DNA of 37,354 bases from a virus. The translations under genes and the position numbers were made by a program. This document shows, in pieces, positions 1 to 36,684 of this stretch (position 1 is its first letter; every line of letters starts with the position of its first letter). The stretch covers positions 1 to 37,354 of IMG/VR virus record IMGVR_UViG_3300025769_000336; one strand, 5' to 3'. Under the pieces are notes generated by a model that worked only from the letters and a program-made list of their open reading frames with translations, did not search any database and was not told where the DNA came from.

Positions 1-234
1 ACTAAAGTTTATGTAAACGAACTAAAGTTAGAAAATATTGTTTCTAGTGGTGGTACTTGTGACCTTAAAAAATTAGACATTGGTGAATTAGAAATTACGT
101 TTAATAGAATAGGTGGAGATAATTCTTTAGTATCTAAAGCATTAACAGTATCAAGTACAGTTACATCAGCAAATTGGGTAGTAGATGGCAACATTGAAGT
201 CCTGATGGGTGAAGTAGCAAGAAAGCCTAACTAA
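1..234 (+). CDS. C-terminal fragment of a late virion or membrane protein (5' end outside window)
   Basis: An open frame runs from the first base to a TAA at 232-234 with no start inside the window, so only the last 77 residues are present. It is almost identical to the C-terminus of the protein encoded at 34471-35586. 224 of 234 bases match; eight codons differ, of which only codon 73 (Ala here, Thr there) changes the residue. The fragment is beta-rich with short alternating hydrophobic strands (for example KLDIGELEITF). Its stop overlaps the next start (TAATG). I do not know the function. The near-silent divergence says both copies are, or recently were, functional proteins under selection. 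Confidence 0.9.
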   Translation, partial: TKVYVNELKLENIVSSGGTCDLKKLDIGELEITFNRIGGDNSLVSKALTVSSTVTSANWVVDGNIEVLMGEVARKPN

Positions 235-389
235 TGCCGCTATACGAATACATCTGTGATAACGATAAATGTGAGACTGAAACTTTTGATGTGCTTACAA
301 GTTTTGAAGATAGTGAAGAGATCTGTCCGAAGTGTAAAGAGAAGAGTAAAGAGAGAAAGAAGTTTTATCAATTTGATTTTAGGATGTAG
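234..389 (+). CDS. FmdB-type small zinc-ribbon protein
   Basis: A 51-residue protein starting MPLYEYIC, the typical opening of FmdB/putative regulatory zinc-ribbon proteins. Four cysteines can form one zinc site: C8 and C13 near the start, and a CPKC knuckle at 31-34. The C-terminus is basic and aromatic (RKKFYQFDFRM). The start overlaps the preceding stop (TAATG), so translation is probably coupled. A second version lies at 35649-35804 with the same length and an almost identical C-terminus but a divergent middle. FmdB-like genes are frequent in tailed phages; their role there is not established, and a regulatory role is only the family guess. Confidence 0.8.
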   Translation: MPLYEYICDNDKCETETFDVLTSFEDSEEICPKCKEKSKERKKFYQFDFRM

Positions 390-426: not shown

Positions 427-2028
427 CTAATCGTATTTGCCGTTAGGCTTCCACCTTGGAACGGGCTTGTAGGTTGCATAATTCCTTAGAACAACAGTTG
501 CATCCTGATCTTCCTTGGCGGTAAAAGTATTTATCTCTTTCATCCACCTATTTCTACCGCTACTCCACTTGCCAGTAAAACCTTTCCAAAGTGCCTTAGC
601 CATCTTGCTTTCAACGGCTAAATTGTACTGCCCTCGATGCTCAACATGACTTCCATGGTCAGCATGAGATAGTTCATGAATAATGATCCCAACAACCTCC
701 TCAGTAATATTGGCAAACCAATATTTACCTGGATGTAAGTGAGCAAGATTGAAGGTAAGATTATTATCTCCAAAACAAGCAGCAGCCTTGTACTTCCAGT
801 CTCTTGTAAAAGAAACCTTAACCTCATGATTATTAAGCTCAACGCTTAACCACCTTGCAAATTCTGCAATCTTAAGGTGGTCATTTACAAGATTGATTGT
901 AGATTTTTTACCATCCCCAAAACCAATCCCAAAACCTTCAGGCTGCGGTCTCTGAAACTTACTAGAAGTAGTTTCTAAACCATTTTCTTTCATCCTTTCC
1001 CTCTCCCGTTTAGACATTGATCTTCCATCAATCAAATCTTTGCCTTTAGCAAACGCTTCTTCGTTAGCATAAGCATTGAAAGGATCTTTAATCATTGCAT
1101 TTTCTCCAAACTTCTCATCCATGACTTTCTTCACAGTTTCATCTGTGGTTCGGTCATCCTCAACCGCAGTAGTAACCCAAGCATTACCAGCTTCAACTTC
1201 ATTCAGAATGTCCATGGTCACATTCAAAGTCTCTGCATAAACATCTTGCAGATAAGAATCTGAAACGACATCCCTGTTTGGAGGAAGCGGAACCTTTTGA
1301 TTGATGTCAACATCATAAGGCATTTCGGTATCTTGAATGTAGATACCCATTTCGTAGATGCCACCCTTCTTATCTTCATCACCATCATCAATCGGCCTGT
1401 AGACATCAATCCTAGTCTTTCTCTTGGTAGTTCTGACTGGGCTGTTTGAATCATCAGCAATAACTGTTTTTAGTATTGCTTCAACATCATCGACCTTTTC
1501 CCTTTTTACTAAGGGTTTTACATCCGCTGCATCACTTGTCACAATGTATTCAACACCTTGTGGTGGTATGAAAGTAACTAACATATCAACACACGCTTGA
1601 ATCTCATCTTGCCTACCACCTACTGTAGCCAAAATCTTTGTGCCTACAGTTCTATCGTTCTTCCTCTTGATCCTGCCACCTTCTTTAGGGAATTTTACTG
1701 TGTGGCCCACAGTTTCAATAGTTGCATATTTAGCAACTGAAAGTAATTCCTTCTCACCGATATTGAATCGACCTCTTACATCAGCCTTAGCTCTTTTAGC
1801 CGTTGGTTTCATAAGAGTCCAGGAATCGGTAATGTCCTGGAAGCCAGCACCATCATCTTCGACAGTTATCTGGATTAGCCCTCTACCTTCGTGACTGATG
1901 TCAACTTTGCAGAAGTTTATTTCCTCATCCCAGCAGTTTGCAATTAGCTCCTTCACTAATTGCCACAAAGGCCTACCTTCGTGTAAGGCTCTCATTCCTT
2001 GAGTGGAAACTTCAAACCTGTTTTTCAT
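427..2028 (-). CDS. GHKL-fold ATPase with C-terminal HExxH metallopeptidase-like motif
   Basis: A 533-residue protein. The N-terminal third has the Bergerat (GHKL) ATP site: N-box KELIANCWDE (26-35, with E27, N31, D34), G1 box DDGAGF (58-63) and a G2-like lid GRFNIGEKEL (86-95). This is the fold of Hsp90, MutL and the phage rIIA N-terminus. The C-terminal part carries HELSHADHGSHVEH (451-464), an HExxH zinc-protease signature with further histidines. The middle (about 130-400) is not recognised. The start has a strong GGAGGT six bases upstream and a good promoter before it. An ATPase joined to a putative protease could remodel or cleave a host target; that is inference. Phage rIIA-like is an alternative label for the N-terminus only. 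Confidence 0.75.
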   Translation of the reverse strand: MKNRFEVSTQGMRALHEGRPLWQLVKELIANCWDEEINFCKVDISHEGRGLIQITVEDDGAGFQDITDSWTLMKPTAKRAKADVRGRFNIGEKELLSVAKYATIETVGHTVKFPKEGGRIKRKNDRTVGTKILATVGGRQDEIQACVDMLVTFIPPQGVEYIVTSDAADVKPLVKREKVDDVEAILKTVIADDSNSPVRTTKRKTRIDVYRPIDDGDEDKKGGIYEMGIYIQDTEMPYDVDINQKVPLPPNRDVVSDSYLQDVYAETLNVTMDILNEVEAGNAWVTTAVEDDRTTDETVKKVMDEKFGENAMIKDPFNAYANEEAFAKGKDLIDGRSMSKRERERMKENGLETTSSKFQRPQPEGFGIGFGDGKKSTINLVNDHLKIAEFARWLSVELNNHEVKVSFTRDWKYKAAACFGDNNLTFNLAHLHPGKYWFANITEEVVGIIIHELSHADHGSHVEHRGQYNLAVESKMAKALWKGFTGKWSSGRNRWMKEINTFTAKEDQDATVVLRNYATYKPVPRWKPNGKYD

Positions 2029-2032
2029 TTCT

Positions 2033-2111
2033 ACCTCCGTAGATTGTTTGTTTTGAGATTAAAAATTAAAATCTCTACAATCAATTCTATACTAATACAG
2101 GCCATTGTCAA
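2033..2111 (-). promoter_or_regulatory. Promoter and stem-loop leader of the ATPase gene
   Basis: On the minus strand there is TTGACA (2111-2106), a 16-bp spacer and TAGAAT (2089-2084). The predicted transcript would begin near 2077, immediately before a stem-loop with 6-bp arms GAGATT/AATCTC (2075-2055). Then follow the box ACAAACAATC (2051-2042) and the ribosome site GGAGGT (2038-2033). The same order (hairpin, ACAAACAAT, GGAGG) recurs before other leftward genes. The rest of the 2029-2244 gap shows nothing I recognise. Confidence 0.6.
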
Positions 2112-2244: not shown

Positions 2245-3108
2245 TTATTTGTTATAAATGTTTGGGTTTTCTAATCTGTATTCTTGTTTTAAACCTTTGT
2301 TGTATTCATCTTTAAGTATTGCAACACCTTCACTTGAAAACTGTGCTGATTGCGTAATCATGCCTACCCAGGTCGTTGAATCGTATTTCTTTAAAATGTC
2401 TATTAACTTTTGTTCTTTATATAATTTATCTTTTTCAAAAAAAACTAAAAATTTATTTACAGACCTTAACATTCCTGAAGTTGTAGCCTTTTTATTAACT
2501 GATTTTGGAGAACCATCAAAAGATTTTCTTAAAATGTTAATAACTTTTTCAAGGTTGCCAACATTATGTAAATCATTTAGGTCTCGTATTGATGTAATGT
2601 TTGGATAACTTTTAGTTGTGCCGCTAAAACCTATAATTTGTGTTCCAGTTTTATCACATATATTAACTATTTCATGGGTTTTTTTATCTTCCATTACCCA
2701 GTCAGCTCTAAAGAGATCAACAGGTTTCATAGGTTGTACATTTTTATTTCTTATTTTGTATTCTTCGGCCCTTTGTTTTTCTGATAAACCTTCTGGCAGT
2801 AAAGATGCTTTGAAATGAAAGTCATTTCCATATTTTTTTTGCATGGCTTGATGCCTGTGATTGCCATCACATATTTCATATAGCTTCCCGTTTTCATTTG
2901 GTATTCTTGAAACTGTAATTTCACCAACTTTTTTAAAATCAAATATTGCTGCCAACCTATTTACATGATTTTGTACAACTGGTCTTCCGTAATTTTTTGG
3001 CACATAACAATCACTTACTTTAATAACAACCTTTTCTAGCTCTTTAAGTGTGTGGCTACCTTTTACTATTTCTGTATTTTCATCATAGTTTTTTATTTTT
3101 GCAAACAT
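2245..3108 (-). CDS. ParB/sulfiredoxin-fold protein
   Basis: A 287-residue protein. The motif ICDGNHRHQAM (about residues 79-89) is the GxxR/H core of ParB N-terminal-like domains, preceded by a beta-strand-rich stretch that mentions a guiding strand pair (VGEITVSRI). Such domains can bind CTP or ATP, act as nucleases, or serve as DNA-binding regulators. The region after about residue 130 is helical and unassigned. I chose the ATG at 3108 because TGGAGG lies just upstream; an upstream TTG in frame (3138) has no ribosome site. It stands apart from its neighbours, with a terminator upstream and a 216-bp gap downstream, so it is probably its own transcription unit. Exact function is unknown. Confidence 0.65.
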   Translation of the reverse strand: MFAKIKNYDENTEIVKGSHTLKELEKVVIKVSDCYVPKNYGRPVVQNHVNRLAAIFDFKKVGEITVSRIPNENGKLYEICDGNHRHQAMQKKYGNDFHFKASLLPEGLSEKQRAEEYKIRNKNVQPMKPVDLFRADWVMEDKKTHEIVNICDKTGTQIIGFSGTTKSYPNITSIRDLNDLHNVGNLEKVINILRKSFDGSPKSVNKKATTSGMLRSVNKFLVFFEKDKLYKEQKLIDILKKYDSTTWVGMITQSAQFSSEGVAILKDEYNKGLKQEYRLENPNIYNK

Positions 3109-3165
3109 ATTCCTCCATTTATATTTATTTGAAAACAAAATATATCATACTTTTATCACATAAGT

Positions 3166-3395: not shown

Positions 3396-3653
3396 TTAGA
3401 ATGTCTCCAGAAATATGGGTGTATACTCACCAACCCAAGCACCAGTTACATTATATTCAAAATACTCTACTGCTTCTTCGTCAGACATTCCATCTCTTTC
3501 CATAAGTATCTCAATACATTTCTGCCTATCATAGACTGCCAGAGCTTTGTTAAACTGCTGCCCTACCCCAATCAAAGCATCTTCAAAGCCGTCAGCAAGT
3601 AATGCTTCAGGGTTGTGCTGACTTATAAATTCTTTTTTCTCTTCGTCTTTCAT
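3396..3653 (-). CDS. Conserved small phage protein paired with the resolvase
   Basis: An 85-residue acidic, mostly helical protein. A conserved-looking C-terminal signature (DEEAVEYFEYNVTGAWVGEY, about 57-76) also occurs in the homologue at 35999-36316. The start overlaps the stop of the upstream PD-(D/E)xK gene (ATGA), and both copies in the window keep this exact coupling, which suggests a shared job. I recognise it only as a type of hypothetical protein often seen in marine phages. No catalytic motif is visible. Confidence 0.8.
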   Translation of the reverse strand: MKDEEKKEFISQHNPEALLADGFEDALIGVGQQFNKALAVYDRQKCIEILMERDGMSDEEAVEYFEYNVTGAWVGEYTPIFLETF

Positions 3654-4033
3654 ATTCCTAAATCTAAAGTTGATTCAAGACTTTTCTTTATTTTTTTCTC
3701 TTCTAATCTAATATGTTCTGTAAGTTTTAAAAATGTAGCAAGATCTAGTGTGACTAGATGAACTGCTTTCTTTTCGTTTACCTTATGTGTTTGACATACT
3801 ATTGGTATTTTATTTGTTGCTCTACCAGCTTTCATAGCTTGATCTACAGCTTTCAATGTCCTGGCACTTACAACCTTACCTGCTTTAACTTCAGCAGCAA
3901 ACTTAATTGTTTCTACATCAGGAACATCTCCTGATTGTCTACCTGTTACAGGGATTCTTTTTGCGTTTACTGCATCTCCGCCAAGAAACTCTGCCCACTT
4001 CCTCTCCCAATTTTTCCATGTTGATCTATCCAT
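3650..4033 (-). CDS. PD-(D/E)xK endonuclease, probable Holliday junction resolvase
   Basis: A 127-residue protein. After an N-terminal helix (WERKWAEFLGG) come RIPVTGRQSGDVPDV and AAEVKAGK, giving the acidic-helix, PD and ExK layout of Hjc-like and VRR-NUC-like resolvases. A C-terminal helix is lysine-rich. It probably trims or resolves branched replication DNA before packaging. The start at 4033 has GGAGG eight bases upstream; the frame is open further upstream, but that part overlaps a separate small gene. It overlaps its downstream partner by 4 bases. The homologue at 36313-36684 keeps the GRxGxDxPD and EVK motifs, supporting the active-site assignment. Confidence 0.78.
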   Translation of the reverse strand: MDRSTWKNWERKWAEFLGGDAVNAKRIPVTGRQSGDVPDVETIKFAAEVKAGKVVSARTLKAVDQAMKAGRATNKIPIVCQTHKVNEKKAVHLVTLDLATFLKLTEHIRLEEKKIKKSLESTLDLGI

Positions 4034-4184
4034 TTTTTTTCCTCCATACACTACCGAACCTACCATCCATGCTATTGAATCCCTCTTTCTCCTCGCCGCA
4101 CTTACACTTTCCAGTAGACACAGGGCCATTCGGTGGTGGAAATATAAATTTATGTATATGTTTATTTTTATCTTCTGACATCAT
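4026..4184 (-). CDS. Small CxC/histidine zinc-binding-like protein
   Basis: A 52-residue protein nested between the loader and the resolvase, overlapping both ends (17 bp with the loader, 8 bp with the resolvase). It contains HIHKFIFPPPNGPVSTGKCK followed by CGEEKE. The pattern H, PPNGP, then cysteines and GEE recurs in small phage and prokaryotic proteins with a half zinc-finger. The start at 4184 follows a modest GGAAAG. The stop (TAG) lies just inside the resolvase start, a coupled arrangement. Role unknown; DNA or protein binding is a guess. Confidence 0.7.
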   Translation of the reverse strand: MMSEDKNKHIHKFIFPPPNGPVSTGKCKCGEEKEGFNSMDGRFGSVWRKKNG

Positions 4185-34380: not shown

Positions 34381-34474
34381 AAAACAAATAAAAAAGAAAG
34401 TAGTAACTTCTACTGCTTTGCTTGCCTTGTGTTTAGGAAGTATAATTGTTATTGGAGAACTATATTCAAGATGA
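34367..34474 (+). CDS. Possible small signal-anchor protein (TTG start)
   Basis: A TTG at 34367 after GAAGG opens a 35-codon frame: a lysine-rich head (KTNKKQIKKKVV) and one membrane segment (TALLALCLGSIIVIG). It overlaps the preceding gene and ends in an ATGA overlap with the next gene, which supports reality. A spanin-like or anchor role is only suggested by shape. Confidence 0.45.
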   Translation: MKTNKKQIKKKVVTSTALLALCLGSIIVIGELYSR

Positions 34475-35586
34475 AAAGAATAATAAAAATAATTAAATCA
34501 ATAATTAAATTACCTGTAAATATTGTTAAAGGTATTGGCAAACTTATATTAGGAATGGCTAATTTTATTTATGACATTGCAAGAGCTTTTGTTAGGATGA
34601 TTGTTTTTATTATTAAATCACCATTGTTGTTAGCTATACAGTCTTACAAGAAAGGCATAATTATAAGAGATTATGTTATGGCTAAAGTAGATTATTTAGA
34701 TAACGAAAGTAAAAAGTGGCATAGGTTTTTTCAAACTTTGGCATTACCATATAATGCTTTATTAAAACTAGGATTTAGTCCACAGATGGCTATGAGTTTT
34801 CTAGCAGTAGGTTCAACAGTTGGTACTGGTGTAGTAGTAAACGAAACTATATTAGCAGAAAGGTCTTTTAGTAATCGTGATGCAGGTGTATATCTTGCAC
34901 CATCAGATATGCCTAACTCTGAATGGGAAGAACAACTACAAGAAGAAGTAACAACTAACACGCTTAGAGTTTTACTTAATGACACTCCAGTAGAAACTAT
35001 TGATATATCAAATGTAAACGTAGGAACATCTTACGCATCTAATGGGCAACCATCAGCTTTGCCTTCGGGTAAAACAGAGGCAATACTAATTGATGGTAAC
35101 AACACACGGATTGAAATAGGTAAACTTACGTTTAGTCGTAACAGTTGTAAAACATTAAACCTTGAAAATATAAATGCAAATAAAGTAACACTTACTAATA
35201 ACCAAGCTGATGGACTATCTGTATACCAAACAGCTTCATCTACAATACCTAACTTACGAGTATCAGGTGGTTACTATATGGCAGACCTATTACAGACAGA
35301 AGGTGGGTTATATGACCGAATACACATTTCACCATTAGATAGCATTAGTGCTACTAAAGTTTATGTAAACGAATTAAAGTTAGAAAATATTGTTTCTAGT
35401 GGTGGTACTTGTGACCTTAAAAAATTAGACATAGGTGAATTAGAAATTACGTTTAATAGAATAGGTGGAGATAATTCTTTAGTATCTAAAGCATTAACAG
35501 TATCAAGTACAGTTACAAGTGCAAATTGGGTAGTAGATGGCAACATTGAAGTTTTGATGGGTGAAGTAACAAGAAAACCTAATTAA
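34471..35586 (+). CDS. Membrane-interacting protein with beta-rich C-terminus
   Basis: A 371-residue protein. The start at 34471 (ATGA overlap with the upstream frame) is preferred over the upstream in-frame start at 34429. Residues 1-70 form repeated basic and hydrophobic helices (MKRIIKIIKSIIKLPVNIVK, then RMIVFIIKSPLLLAI). A further hydrophobic stretch lies near 105-125 (AMSFLAVGSTVGTGVVV). The C-terminal half is a ladder of short strands (IDISNVNV, IEIGKLTF, LNLENINANKVTL) like a beta-helix or stacked sheet. The final 77 residues are nearly identical to the fragment at 1-234. Function unknown; membrane attack, pore or fibre roles are possible. Confidence 0.6.
   Translation: MKRIIKIIKSIIKLPVNIVKGIGKLILGMANFIYDIARAFVRMIVFIIKSPLLLAIQSYKKGIIIRDYVMAKVDYLDNESKKWHRFFQTLALPYNALLKLGFSPQMAMSFLAVGSTVGTGVVVNETILAERSFSNRDAGVYLAPSDMPNSEWEEQLQEEVTTNTLRVLLNDTPVETIDISNVNVGTSYASNGQPSALPSGKTEAILIDGNNTRIEIGKLTFSRNSCKTLNLENINANKVTLTNNQADGLSVYQTASSTIPNLRVSGGYYMADLLQTEGGLYDRIHISPLDSISATKVYVNELKLENIVSSGGTCDLKKLDIGELEITFNRIGGDNSLVSKALTVSSTVTSANWVVDGNIEVLMGEVTRKPN
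35353..35586 (+). repeat. Second copy of the window's first 234 bases
   Basis: This stretch aligns without gaps to 1-234 (offset 35352) with 10 mismatches. They are denser in the last third. Past the stop codon the two regions diverge quickly, although both continue into an FmdB-like gene. Confidence 0.95.
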
Positions 35587-35588
35587 AT

Positions 35589-35644
35589 TTGCAATATTAT
35601 CTAAACGAGAATTAAATAAAAAAAATATTAGTGGAAGTGTACAC
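35589..35644 (+). promoter_or_regulatory. Promoter with GTGTACAC site before the second FmdB-like gene
   Basis: TTGCAA (35589-35594), 17 bp, then TTAAAT (35612-35617). An 8-bp palindrome GTGTACAC (35637-35644) lies about 20 bp after the -10, just upstream of the ATG. The left-hand copy of this gene has no such spacer; it overlaps the preceding stop. Confidence 0.4.
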
Positions 35645-35648
35645 ATAC

Positions 35649-35804
35649 ATGCCTTTGTACGAATACATATGCAACAATGAAAACTGTGATAAAGAAACTT
35701 TTGAGGTTCTGACGAGCTTTGATGAGTCCCCAGAGGTATGTCCAGATTGCAAAGAAAGAAGCGAAGATAGAAAGAAGTTCTATCAGTTTGATTTCAGGAT
35801 GTAA
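35649..35804 (+). CDS. FmdB-type small zinc-ribbon protein (second version)
   Basis: A 51-residue protein starting MPLYEYIC with C8, C13 and the knuckle CPDC (31-34). The C-terminal DRKKFYQFDFRM is almost the same as in the version at 234-389. The middle differs. Unlike that copy, it is separated from the upstream gene by 62 bp and has its own candidate promoter and palindrome. Confidence 0.8.
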   Translation: MPLYEYICNNENCDKETFEVLTSFDESPEVCPDCKERSEDRKKFYQFDFRM

Positions 35805-35998: not shown

Positions 35999-36316
35999 TC
36001 ATAGAAGTATATCATTAACTGAATCTAAGAACAATGGTGTTCCCTCTCCAGAATAATTACCTTTTATATTATATTCAAAATAATCTCTAGCTTCATCTTC
36101 TGTCATGTCGTCATTGACCATCAAGCATGAAATAACTTTTACTGAATCATATATTGCTAAAGACTTGTTGAACTCGTGAGCAACTCCGACAAGAGCCGAA
36201 GAAAACTTATCTGGAAGCAACATTGCTTTCTCATTACAATCTTCCAAATACCTTTTAAATACTATTGAATACACTCTTTCTCCTTCTTTCGCTTCACTTA
36301 GTTTACCCCATTTCAT
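35999..36316 (-). CDS. Conserved small phage protein paired with a resolvase (second version)
   Basis: A 105-residue homologue of the protein at 3396-3653, with ALVGVAHEFNKSLAIYD and DEARDYFEYNIKGNYSGEGT. It has an extra N-terminal part (MKWGKLSEAKEGERVYSIVF). It overlaps the upstream resolvase stop by ATGA as in the left copy. Function unknown. Confidence 0.8.
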   Translation of the reverse strand: MKWGKLSEAKEGERVYSIVFKRYLEDCNEKAMLLPDKFSSALVGVAHEFNKSLAIYDSVKVISCLMVNDDMTEDEARDYFEYNIKGNYSGEGTPLFLDSVNDILL

Positions 36317-36684
36317 ATTGATAAGTCTTTTCTACTTTTTAATAATTTATTATGATTTTCATTTTTCAAAACTAAATGTTTTGCAATATTTAAAAAATCA
36401 TCAAGGTAAAGAGTAACAACATGCTGTACATCCCTTTTACCTTTTTCTTTATGTGCCTGAAAAAGAATAGGATATTTGTGAGTGTACTTACCCACTTCCT
36501 TTATTCCTTCCAATGCCTTTAATGTTTTCTTGGAACAGACATCACCTTTCTTGACTTCACCAACAATGGTGTGGGAAGTTATGTCAGGTATGTCTGACCC
36601 ACTACGCCCTGTCACAGGGATTCTTGTCCCATGTATTTTCTTAGCGTATTCTCTTTCTTGTGATTTCCATGTATTTCTGTGCAT
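36313..36684 (-). CDS. PD-(D/E)xK resolvase (second version)
   Basis: A 123-residue homologue of the protein at 3650-4033. RIPVTGRSGSDIPDI is followed by GEVKKGD, giving the same catalytic layout. Middle and C-terminal parts differ strongly. GGAG stands before the ATG, and the palindrome GTGTACAC (36685-36692) touches the start codon. The stop overlaps the partner gene (ATGA). Confidence 0.75.
   Translation of the reverse strand: MHRNTWKSQEREYAKKIHGTRIPVTGRSGSDIPDITSHTIVGEVKKGDVCSKKTLKALEGIKEVGKYTHKYPILFQAHKEKGKRDVQHVVTLYLDDFLNIAKHLVLKNENHNKLLKSRKDLSI

What the first reader, a model, noticed from the sequence alone, without database searches (positions are those of the whole stretch)
427..2028. 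GHKL ATPase joined to an HExxH protease-like domain in a phage early module
All GHKL boxes are visible (E27, N31, DDGAGF, GRFNIGEKEL) together with HELSHADHGSHVEH at 451-464. I know no well-described phage protein with both. An ATP-gated protease acting on a host defence, replication or membrane target would be a new type of takeover factor. It has its own good promoter.
Basis: partly seen in the sequence, partly recalled or inferred. Interest (0 to 1): 0.65.

Follow-up and report, generated by a model that had tools for sequence, protein, structure and literature searches.

The report
Phage ATPase fused to metal protease
A phage gene encodes a protein that joins an Hsp90/MutL-type ATP switch to a zinc-protease domain, and more than a hundred distant relatives in viruses, plasmids, bacteria and archaea keep the key residues of both halves, so it looks like an undescribed family of ATP-controlled proteases used in conflicts between mobile DNA and host cells.

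Summary
Both halves are real. The N-terminal half is a GHKL ATPase followed by an S5/Hsp90-like middle region. The C-terminal ~130 residues are a minigluzincin/SprT/WLM-like zincin with HExxHx5H (H451, E452, H455, H461). The protein is not an oddity of one phage: 154 viral contigs and 34 cellular contigs carry relatives. In a 108-sequence alignment at 23-46% identity to the window, E27, N31, D58, G62, R85, G86, G91, K93, Q244, R252, H451, E452, H455 and H461 are invariant. AlphaFold (pLDDT 88.5) places HELSH on a helix, and the isolated C-domain's best solved matches are jannalysin, selecase and abylysin. Best reading: ATP binding closes a GHKL clamp on a target and licenses a single-polypeptide metalloprotease, used by phages and plasmids against a host or rival. 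It resembles GHKL-nuclease effectors such as VcSduA, with a protease in place of the nuclease. The target, ATP dependence and actual proteolysis are inferred. I found no description of this fusion in the paper library, and 50,697 deposited phage records contain one relative.

The parts
427..2028 (-). 533-aa GHKL-zincin protein, whole gene including stop
1600..2028 (-). GHKL ATP-binding domain, about residues 1-143: motif I E27/N31/D34, motif II D58-G62, lid RGRFNIGEK 85-93, motif IV G129
   Evidence: Pfam HATPase_c_3 3.4e-7; invariant residues in 108 sequences; TopoVI-B, MutL, sacsin, MORC3 by profile; hhalign to an HtpG alignment E 1e-6
958..1599 (-). transducer/middle region, about residues 144-357, S5-like then helices and a small alpha/beta part, with invariant E226, G228, Q244 and R252 (candidate catalytic basic residue R252 or K245)
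   Evidence: AlphaFold secondary structure; Foldseek to Hsp90/TRAP1 N+M, MutL, GyrB, TopoVI-B; not confirmed by sequence profile
502..915 (-). C-terminal zincin domain, residues 372-509
   Evidence: profile to myroilysin, proabylysin, Wss1p; own model and Foldseek to jannalysin, selecase, abylysin, SPRTN
646..678 (-). HELSHADHGSH, residues 451-461: HExxHx5H zinc site (H451, E452 catalytic, H455, H461)
   Evidence: invariant in the 108-row alignment; helix 443-456 in the model
2084..2111 (-). promoter-like site TTGACA-16-TAGAAT, 11/12
   Evidence: consensus match only
2245..3138 (-). upstream neighbour, ParB/DUF6551-like protein; shares the presence/absence pattern at the contig ends
   Evidence: weak DUF6551 1e-4 and ParB-like 0.0056; junction comparison

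Best explanation
It is an ATP-gated metalloprotease. SHOWN by sequence and model: a GHKL ATPase with complete motifs, an S5/Hsp90-like middle region and a C-terminal minigluzincin/SprT/WLM-like zincin whose HExxH plus a third histidine are invariant. INFERRED: ATP binding dimerises and closes the GHKL-middle clamp around a protein target, as in Hsp90, MutL and MORC; closing brings the target to, or unlocks, the zincin, which cuts it; hydrolysis reopens the clamp. INFERRED: in this phage it is made from its own promoter at the end of the leftward replication cluster and acts early on a host protein, most likely a defence or nucleic-acid-bound protein. It is carried as accessory cargo that moves between phages, plasmids and cells.
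For: 108-row alignment at 23-46% identity to the window: invariant G11 E27 N31 D34 D58 G62 R85 G86 G91 K93 G129 E226 G228 Q244 R252 H451 E452 H455 H461. HExxH is intact in 111 of 113 distinct homologues; of the two others one is a frameshift with the site present in another frame and one is truncated. All 111 have a further histidine 2-8 residues on, 78 of them exactly x5. Each half is recovered separately by profile: TopoVI-B, MutL, sacsin, MORC3 and Wss1p, myroilysin, proabylysin. AlphaFold pLDDT 88.5, HExxH on helix 443-456; Foldseek Hsp90/TRAP1 3e-13 for the whole chain, jannalysin, selecase, abylysin, SPRTN for the C-domain. Joint retention of both sites across this diversity argues that the ATPase and protease act together. 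Mobile-element distribution: 154 viral contigs, 11 of the best 80 on contigs of 200 kb or more, a terminase on 21 of 50 other virus records tested, but 1 of 398 further Pseudomonadota genomes and 2 of 291 further cyanobacterial genomes. Virus and cell sequences are interleaved in the tree, at least 11 forced switches. A GHKL domain paired with a C-terminal effector is known in VcSduA (PMC12137116).
Against: No substrate, no biochemistry, no conserved partner gene. Dimerisation was not modelled. The Hsp90-like reading of the middle region rests on fold search only. Cellular homologues beside TIR, CHAT and SIR2-HerA genes would fit a defence effector as well.
Confidence: 0.6

Rival explanations
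1. Defence or superinfection-exclusion effector: the element uses it against other phages or plasmids; the GHKL domain senses the invader (DNA end, structure or protein) and unleashes the protease, possibly by abortive infection.
For: PADLOC TmtA models (Tiamat, name from memory) match 43 of 77 members, best 4.8e-8; VcSduA has GHKL plus nuclease and defends; the Rhodovastum copy lies near SIR2-HerA and a helicase; cyanobacterial copies near TIR, TPR, CHAT and DAC genes.
Against: Most relatives found are in virus records, including very large ones, with diverse neighbours; matches to TmtA are probably to the shared GHKL fold only.
Confidence: 0.3
2. DNA-protein crosslink or roadblock protease: like Wss1/SPRTN it removes proteins stuck on replicating DNA, with the GHKL clamp as the DNA-loading device.
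For: C-domain profile and fold resemble Wss1p and SPRTN; lies next to the replication cluster; GHKL relatives TopoVI-B, MutL and MORC act on DNA (established knowledge).
Against: No known DNA-binding domain was detected; minigluzincins without a DNA role match as well or better; patchy distribution is unlike a core replication function.
Confidence: 0.2
3. Chaperone-type protein (Hsp90/RIIA-like) in which the zincin fold is a structural or self-processing module, for example for virion assembly.
For: Full-length fold hits are Hsp90/TRAP1 and many phage RIIA models.
Against: Catalytic E452 and all zinc ligands are invariant; the gene sits with replication, not structural, genes; T4 RIIA has no HExxH and aligns only in the GHKL part.
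Confidence: 0.1

Closest known systems
VcSduA (GHKL-type Shedu defence protein, PMC12137116)
   Same: Single polypeptide with N-terminal GHKL ATPase, clamp-like middle and C-terminal effector enzyme
   Different: Effector is a PD-(D/E)xK nuclease; here it is a zinc protease. VcSduA is a bacterial defence gene
Phage RIIA (T4 rIIA and relatives)
   Same: GHKL domain with variable C-terminal part in phages, host-conflict role (PMC7824862)
   Different: Aligns only over the GHKL part (hhalign probability 46); 725 aa, no HExxH in T4 RIIA
Hsp90/HtpG/TRAP1
   Same: GHKL plus S5-like middle region by fold; GHKL by profile
   Different: Hsp90 C-terminal dimerisation domain absent, a zincin in its place; middle not supported by sequence
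Wss1/WLM, SprT/SPRTN, YgjP-like and minigluzincin metallopeptidases
   Same: C-domain profile and fold, HExxH plus histidine
   Different: Not fused to a GHKL ATPase in the described members known to me; only 5 + 3 + 1 of 77 members match the Pfam models individually
Tiamat (TmtA)
   Same: HMM similarity to many relatives, probably in the ATPase
   Different: No evidence here that TmtA has the zincin; the window protein itself has no match
Polyvalent-protein zincin MPTases and phage SprT-like peptidases
   Same: Zincins used by phages and plasmids in conflicts (PMC5512222, PMC7824862)
   Different: Not coupled to GHKL in the passages read; polyvalent MPTases there use a glutamate third ligand

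Membership tests
GHKL ATPase superfamily | Motif I E..N, motif II DxGxG, lid G-rich motif, motif IV G | tested here: met
   All invariant in 108 sequences; HATPase_c_3 above cut-off; note motif II is D-D-x-P-x-G in most members
GHKL ATPase superfamily | ATP hydrolysis and ATP-dependent dimer closure | not testable with these tools
   needs biochemistry
Zincin (HExxH) metallopeptidase | HExxH on a helix with a third ligand downstream and zincin topology (helix, strands, active-site helix, second helix) | tested here: met
Zincin (HExxH) metallopeptidase | Zinc bound and peptide bonds cut | not testable with these tools
   no coordinates for geometry, no assay
WLM / SprT-like / YgjP-like Pfam families | Score above Pfam cut-off | tested here: inconclusive
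   window WLM 15.8 bits against cut-off 26; only a few of 77 members reach E<0.01
Hsp90 family | N, M and C-terminal dimerisation domains | tested here: not met
   no Hsp90 C domain; M similarity by fold only
Phage RIIA | Homology over the whole protein | tested here: not met
   GHKL part only
Shedu (VcSduA type) | DUF4263 nuclease domain | tested here: not met
   no such Pfam match
Tiamat | TmtA HMM match | tested here: not met
   no match for the window; relatives match in part, region not resolved in the output

The most novel reading that the evidence does not exclude
A previously undescribed, widespread family of GHKL-clamp metalloproteases in which phages and plasmids use ATP-driven closure, without an AAA+ ring, to select and cut one specific host or rival protein early in infection.
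Probability: 0.3. Interest if true: 0.8.

Novelty: new variant of a known kind. Interest (0 to 1): 0.6.

Why it matters
The energy-dependent proteases I know in bacteria and phages use AAA+ rings (general knowledge). A single-chain protease gated by a GHKL switch would be a different design, and it would extend the GHKL-effector theme (RIIA, prokaryotic MORC, VcSduA) from nucleases to proteases. The family is present on plasmids of culturable bacteria, including Picosynechococcus PCC 7002 and Methylibium PM1, so it can be tested now although almost all phage copies are uncultured.

Tried and rejected
A single-sequence scan of viral contigs found nothing; the profile scan then found 154. Single-sequence PDB search gave only chance hits. 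Artefact or one-off fusion: rejected by >110 full-length homologues with the same architecture. Loss of the protease site in relatives: only a frameshift (L009) and a truncation (L041). A universal partner gene: none found; the commonest clusters are recombinase (12 loci), DUF932 (11 loci) and SNF2 helicase (6 loci) at varied distances. An adjacent second GHKL-like protein in four related phages as a distant paralogue: hhalign probability 4, not supported. Hsp90-type middle domain by sequence: not supported. A membrane target: no evidence. Literature searches for this fusion gave no description; the library holds open-licence papers only.

Full report
What is there. The gene is on the minus strand, 427-2028, 533 aa, ATG start with a GGAGG ribosome-binding site and an 11/12 sigma-70-like promoter match 55 bases upstream. 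It is the last gene of a leftward cluster with a replication initiator, a DnaC-like loader and a resolvase; structural genes, including a terminase (phrog_2, 1e-29), run rightward. The window is a 37-kb virus record.

The two halves. Residues 1-143 are a GHKL domain (HATPase_c_3 3.4e-7). A profile of the family hits TopoVI-B, MutL, sacsin and MORC3 with its N-terminal part and Wss1p, myroilysin and proabylysin with its C-terminal part. The AlphaFold model has mean pLDDT 88.5 and pTM 0.78; HELSH lies on helix 443-456. The whole model matches Hsp90/TRAP1, MutL, GyrB, TopoVI-B and MORC3 and, in the viral library, one 30%-identical protein of 399 aa followed by many RIIA proteins. The C-domain alone (residues 372-509) was modelled at pLDDT 82; its best solved matches are jannalysin, selecase and abylysin, then SPRTN (6mdx) and AQ_1354. 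This is the minigluzincin/SprT/WLM group; Wss1 has been placed there by others (PMC4559962).

Conservation. In 108 sequences at 23-46% identity to the window, the invariant residues are G11 E27 N31 D34 D58 G62 R85 G86 G91 K93 G129 E226 G228 Q244 R252 H451 E452 H455 H461. In 113 distinct homologues HExxH is present in 111; L009 is a frameshift with the site in another frame, L041 is truncated. The spacing to the next histidine is 5 in 78 of 111 and 2-8 overall. The S5 domain of this superfamily usually gives a basic catalytic residue (PMC2292703); R252 or K245 is the candidate here, an inference.

Distribution. Profile scans found 154 viral contigs (80 kept) and 34 loci in one-per-species genomes, from Chloroflexota, Planctomycetota, Pseudomonadota, Cyanobacteriota, Acidobacteriota, Patescibacteria and archaeal MAGs (Pacearchaeota, Nanohalarchaeota). 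Six plasmid records and one deposited phage record (485 kb, uncultured) carry it. It is rare in cellular genomes: 1 of 398 further Pseudomonadota and 2 of 291 further cyanobacterial genomes. Of 50 other virus records tested 21 also carry a recognisable terminase. In the tree virus and genome sequences are interleaved (at least 11 forced switches); the window groups with L043, L044, L042, L102 and a Chloroflexi MAG contig, L025, at 99% SH-aLRT, a weak hint of a Chloroflexota host.

Context. No partner is conserved family-wide. Cyanobacterial copies lie near TIR, DUF4145, CHAT or DAC genes, and the Rhodovastum copy near SIR2-HerA and a helicase. At the contig ends, window 1-234 and 35353-35586 are 96% identical and the next 155 bases 74% identical; after that the left end has this gene and a ParB-like gene before a phrog_13182-resolvase pair, while the right end goes straight to a diverged copy of that pair. 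This looks like two haplotypes of one junction joined by assembly, one without the gene; it would make the gene accessory cargo, but a real duplication is not excluded.

Interpretation. Joint, near-absolute conservation of the ATP site and the zinc site argues for coupled activities. The nearest working analogue is VcSduA, a GHKL domain with a clamp-like middle and a C-terminal nuclease, in which the authors hypothesise that the GHKL domain controls the nuclease (PMC12137116). Here the effector is a protease. Whether the target is a host defence protein, a rival element's protein or a DNA-bound roadblock is not settled.

Not shown: zinc binding, ATP hydrolysis, dimerisation, proteolysis, substrate, time of expression, host.

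Noticed in passing
window 1-388 and 35353-35803: The contig ends hold two versions of the same junction (96% over 234 bases, then 74% over 155); only the left one carries the GHKL-zincin and ParB-like genes. Suggests strain variants joined by assembly, or a duplication.
   Followed up: partly
window 3396-4129 and 35999-36684: A two-gene unit (phrog_13182 protein plus resolvase-like protein) is present twice, 48% and 41% identical at the protein level.
   Followed up: partly
L054:7241-8677, L055:10324-11760, L062:10322-11746, L074:9768-11210: Four related phages carry, 0.3-0.9 kb downstream of the GHKL-zincin gene, a second protein with a GHKL-like glycine box (GQFGSGNK) and a degenerate EECxHW stretch near its C-terminus; homology to the family is not supported by hhalign.
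   Followed up: partly
L007:7394-9545 and L006: In Picosynechococcus plasmids the GHKL-zincin gene directly follows a DAC (diadenylate cyclase-like) gene and lies near CHAT-domain proteins.
   Followed up: partly
window 34429-35586; L042:1600-2520, L044:3821-4741, L102:5607-6527: An unannotated protein family shared by the window and three of its nearest viral relatives lies within 2 kb of the GHKL-zincin gene in the relatives (and its 3' end lies at window 1-234).
   Followed up: no
G006 (genome of L011): A 1.1-Mb Patescibacteria MAG holds two different copies of the family on separate contigs.
   Followed up: no
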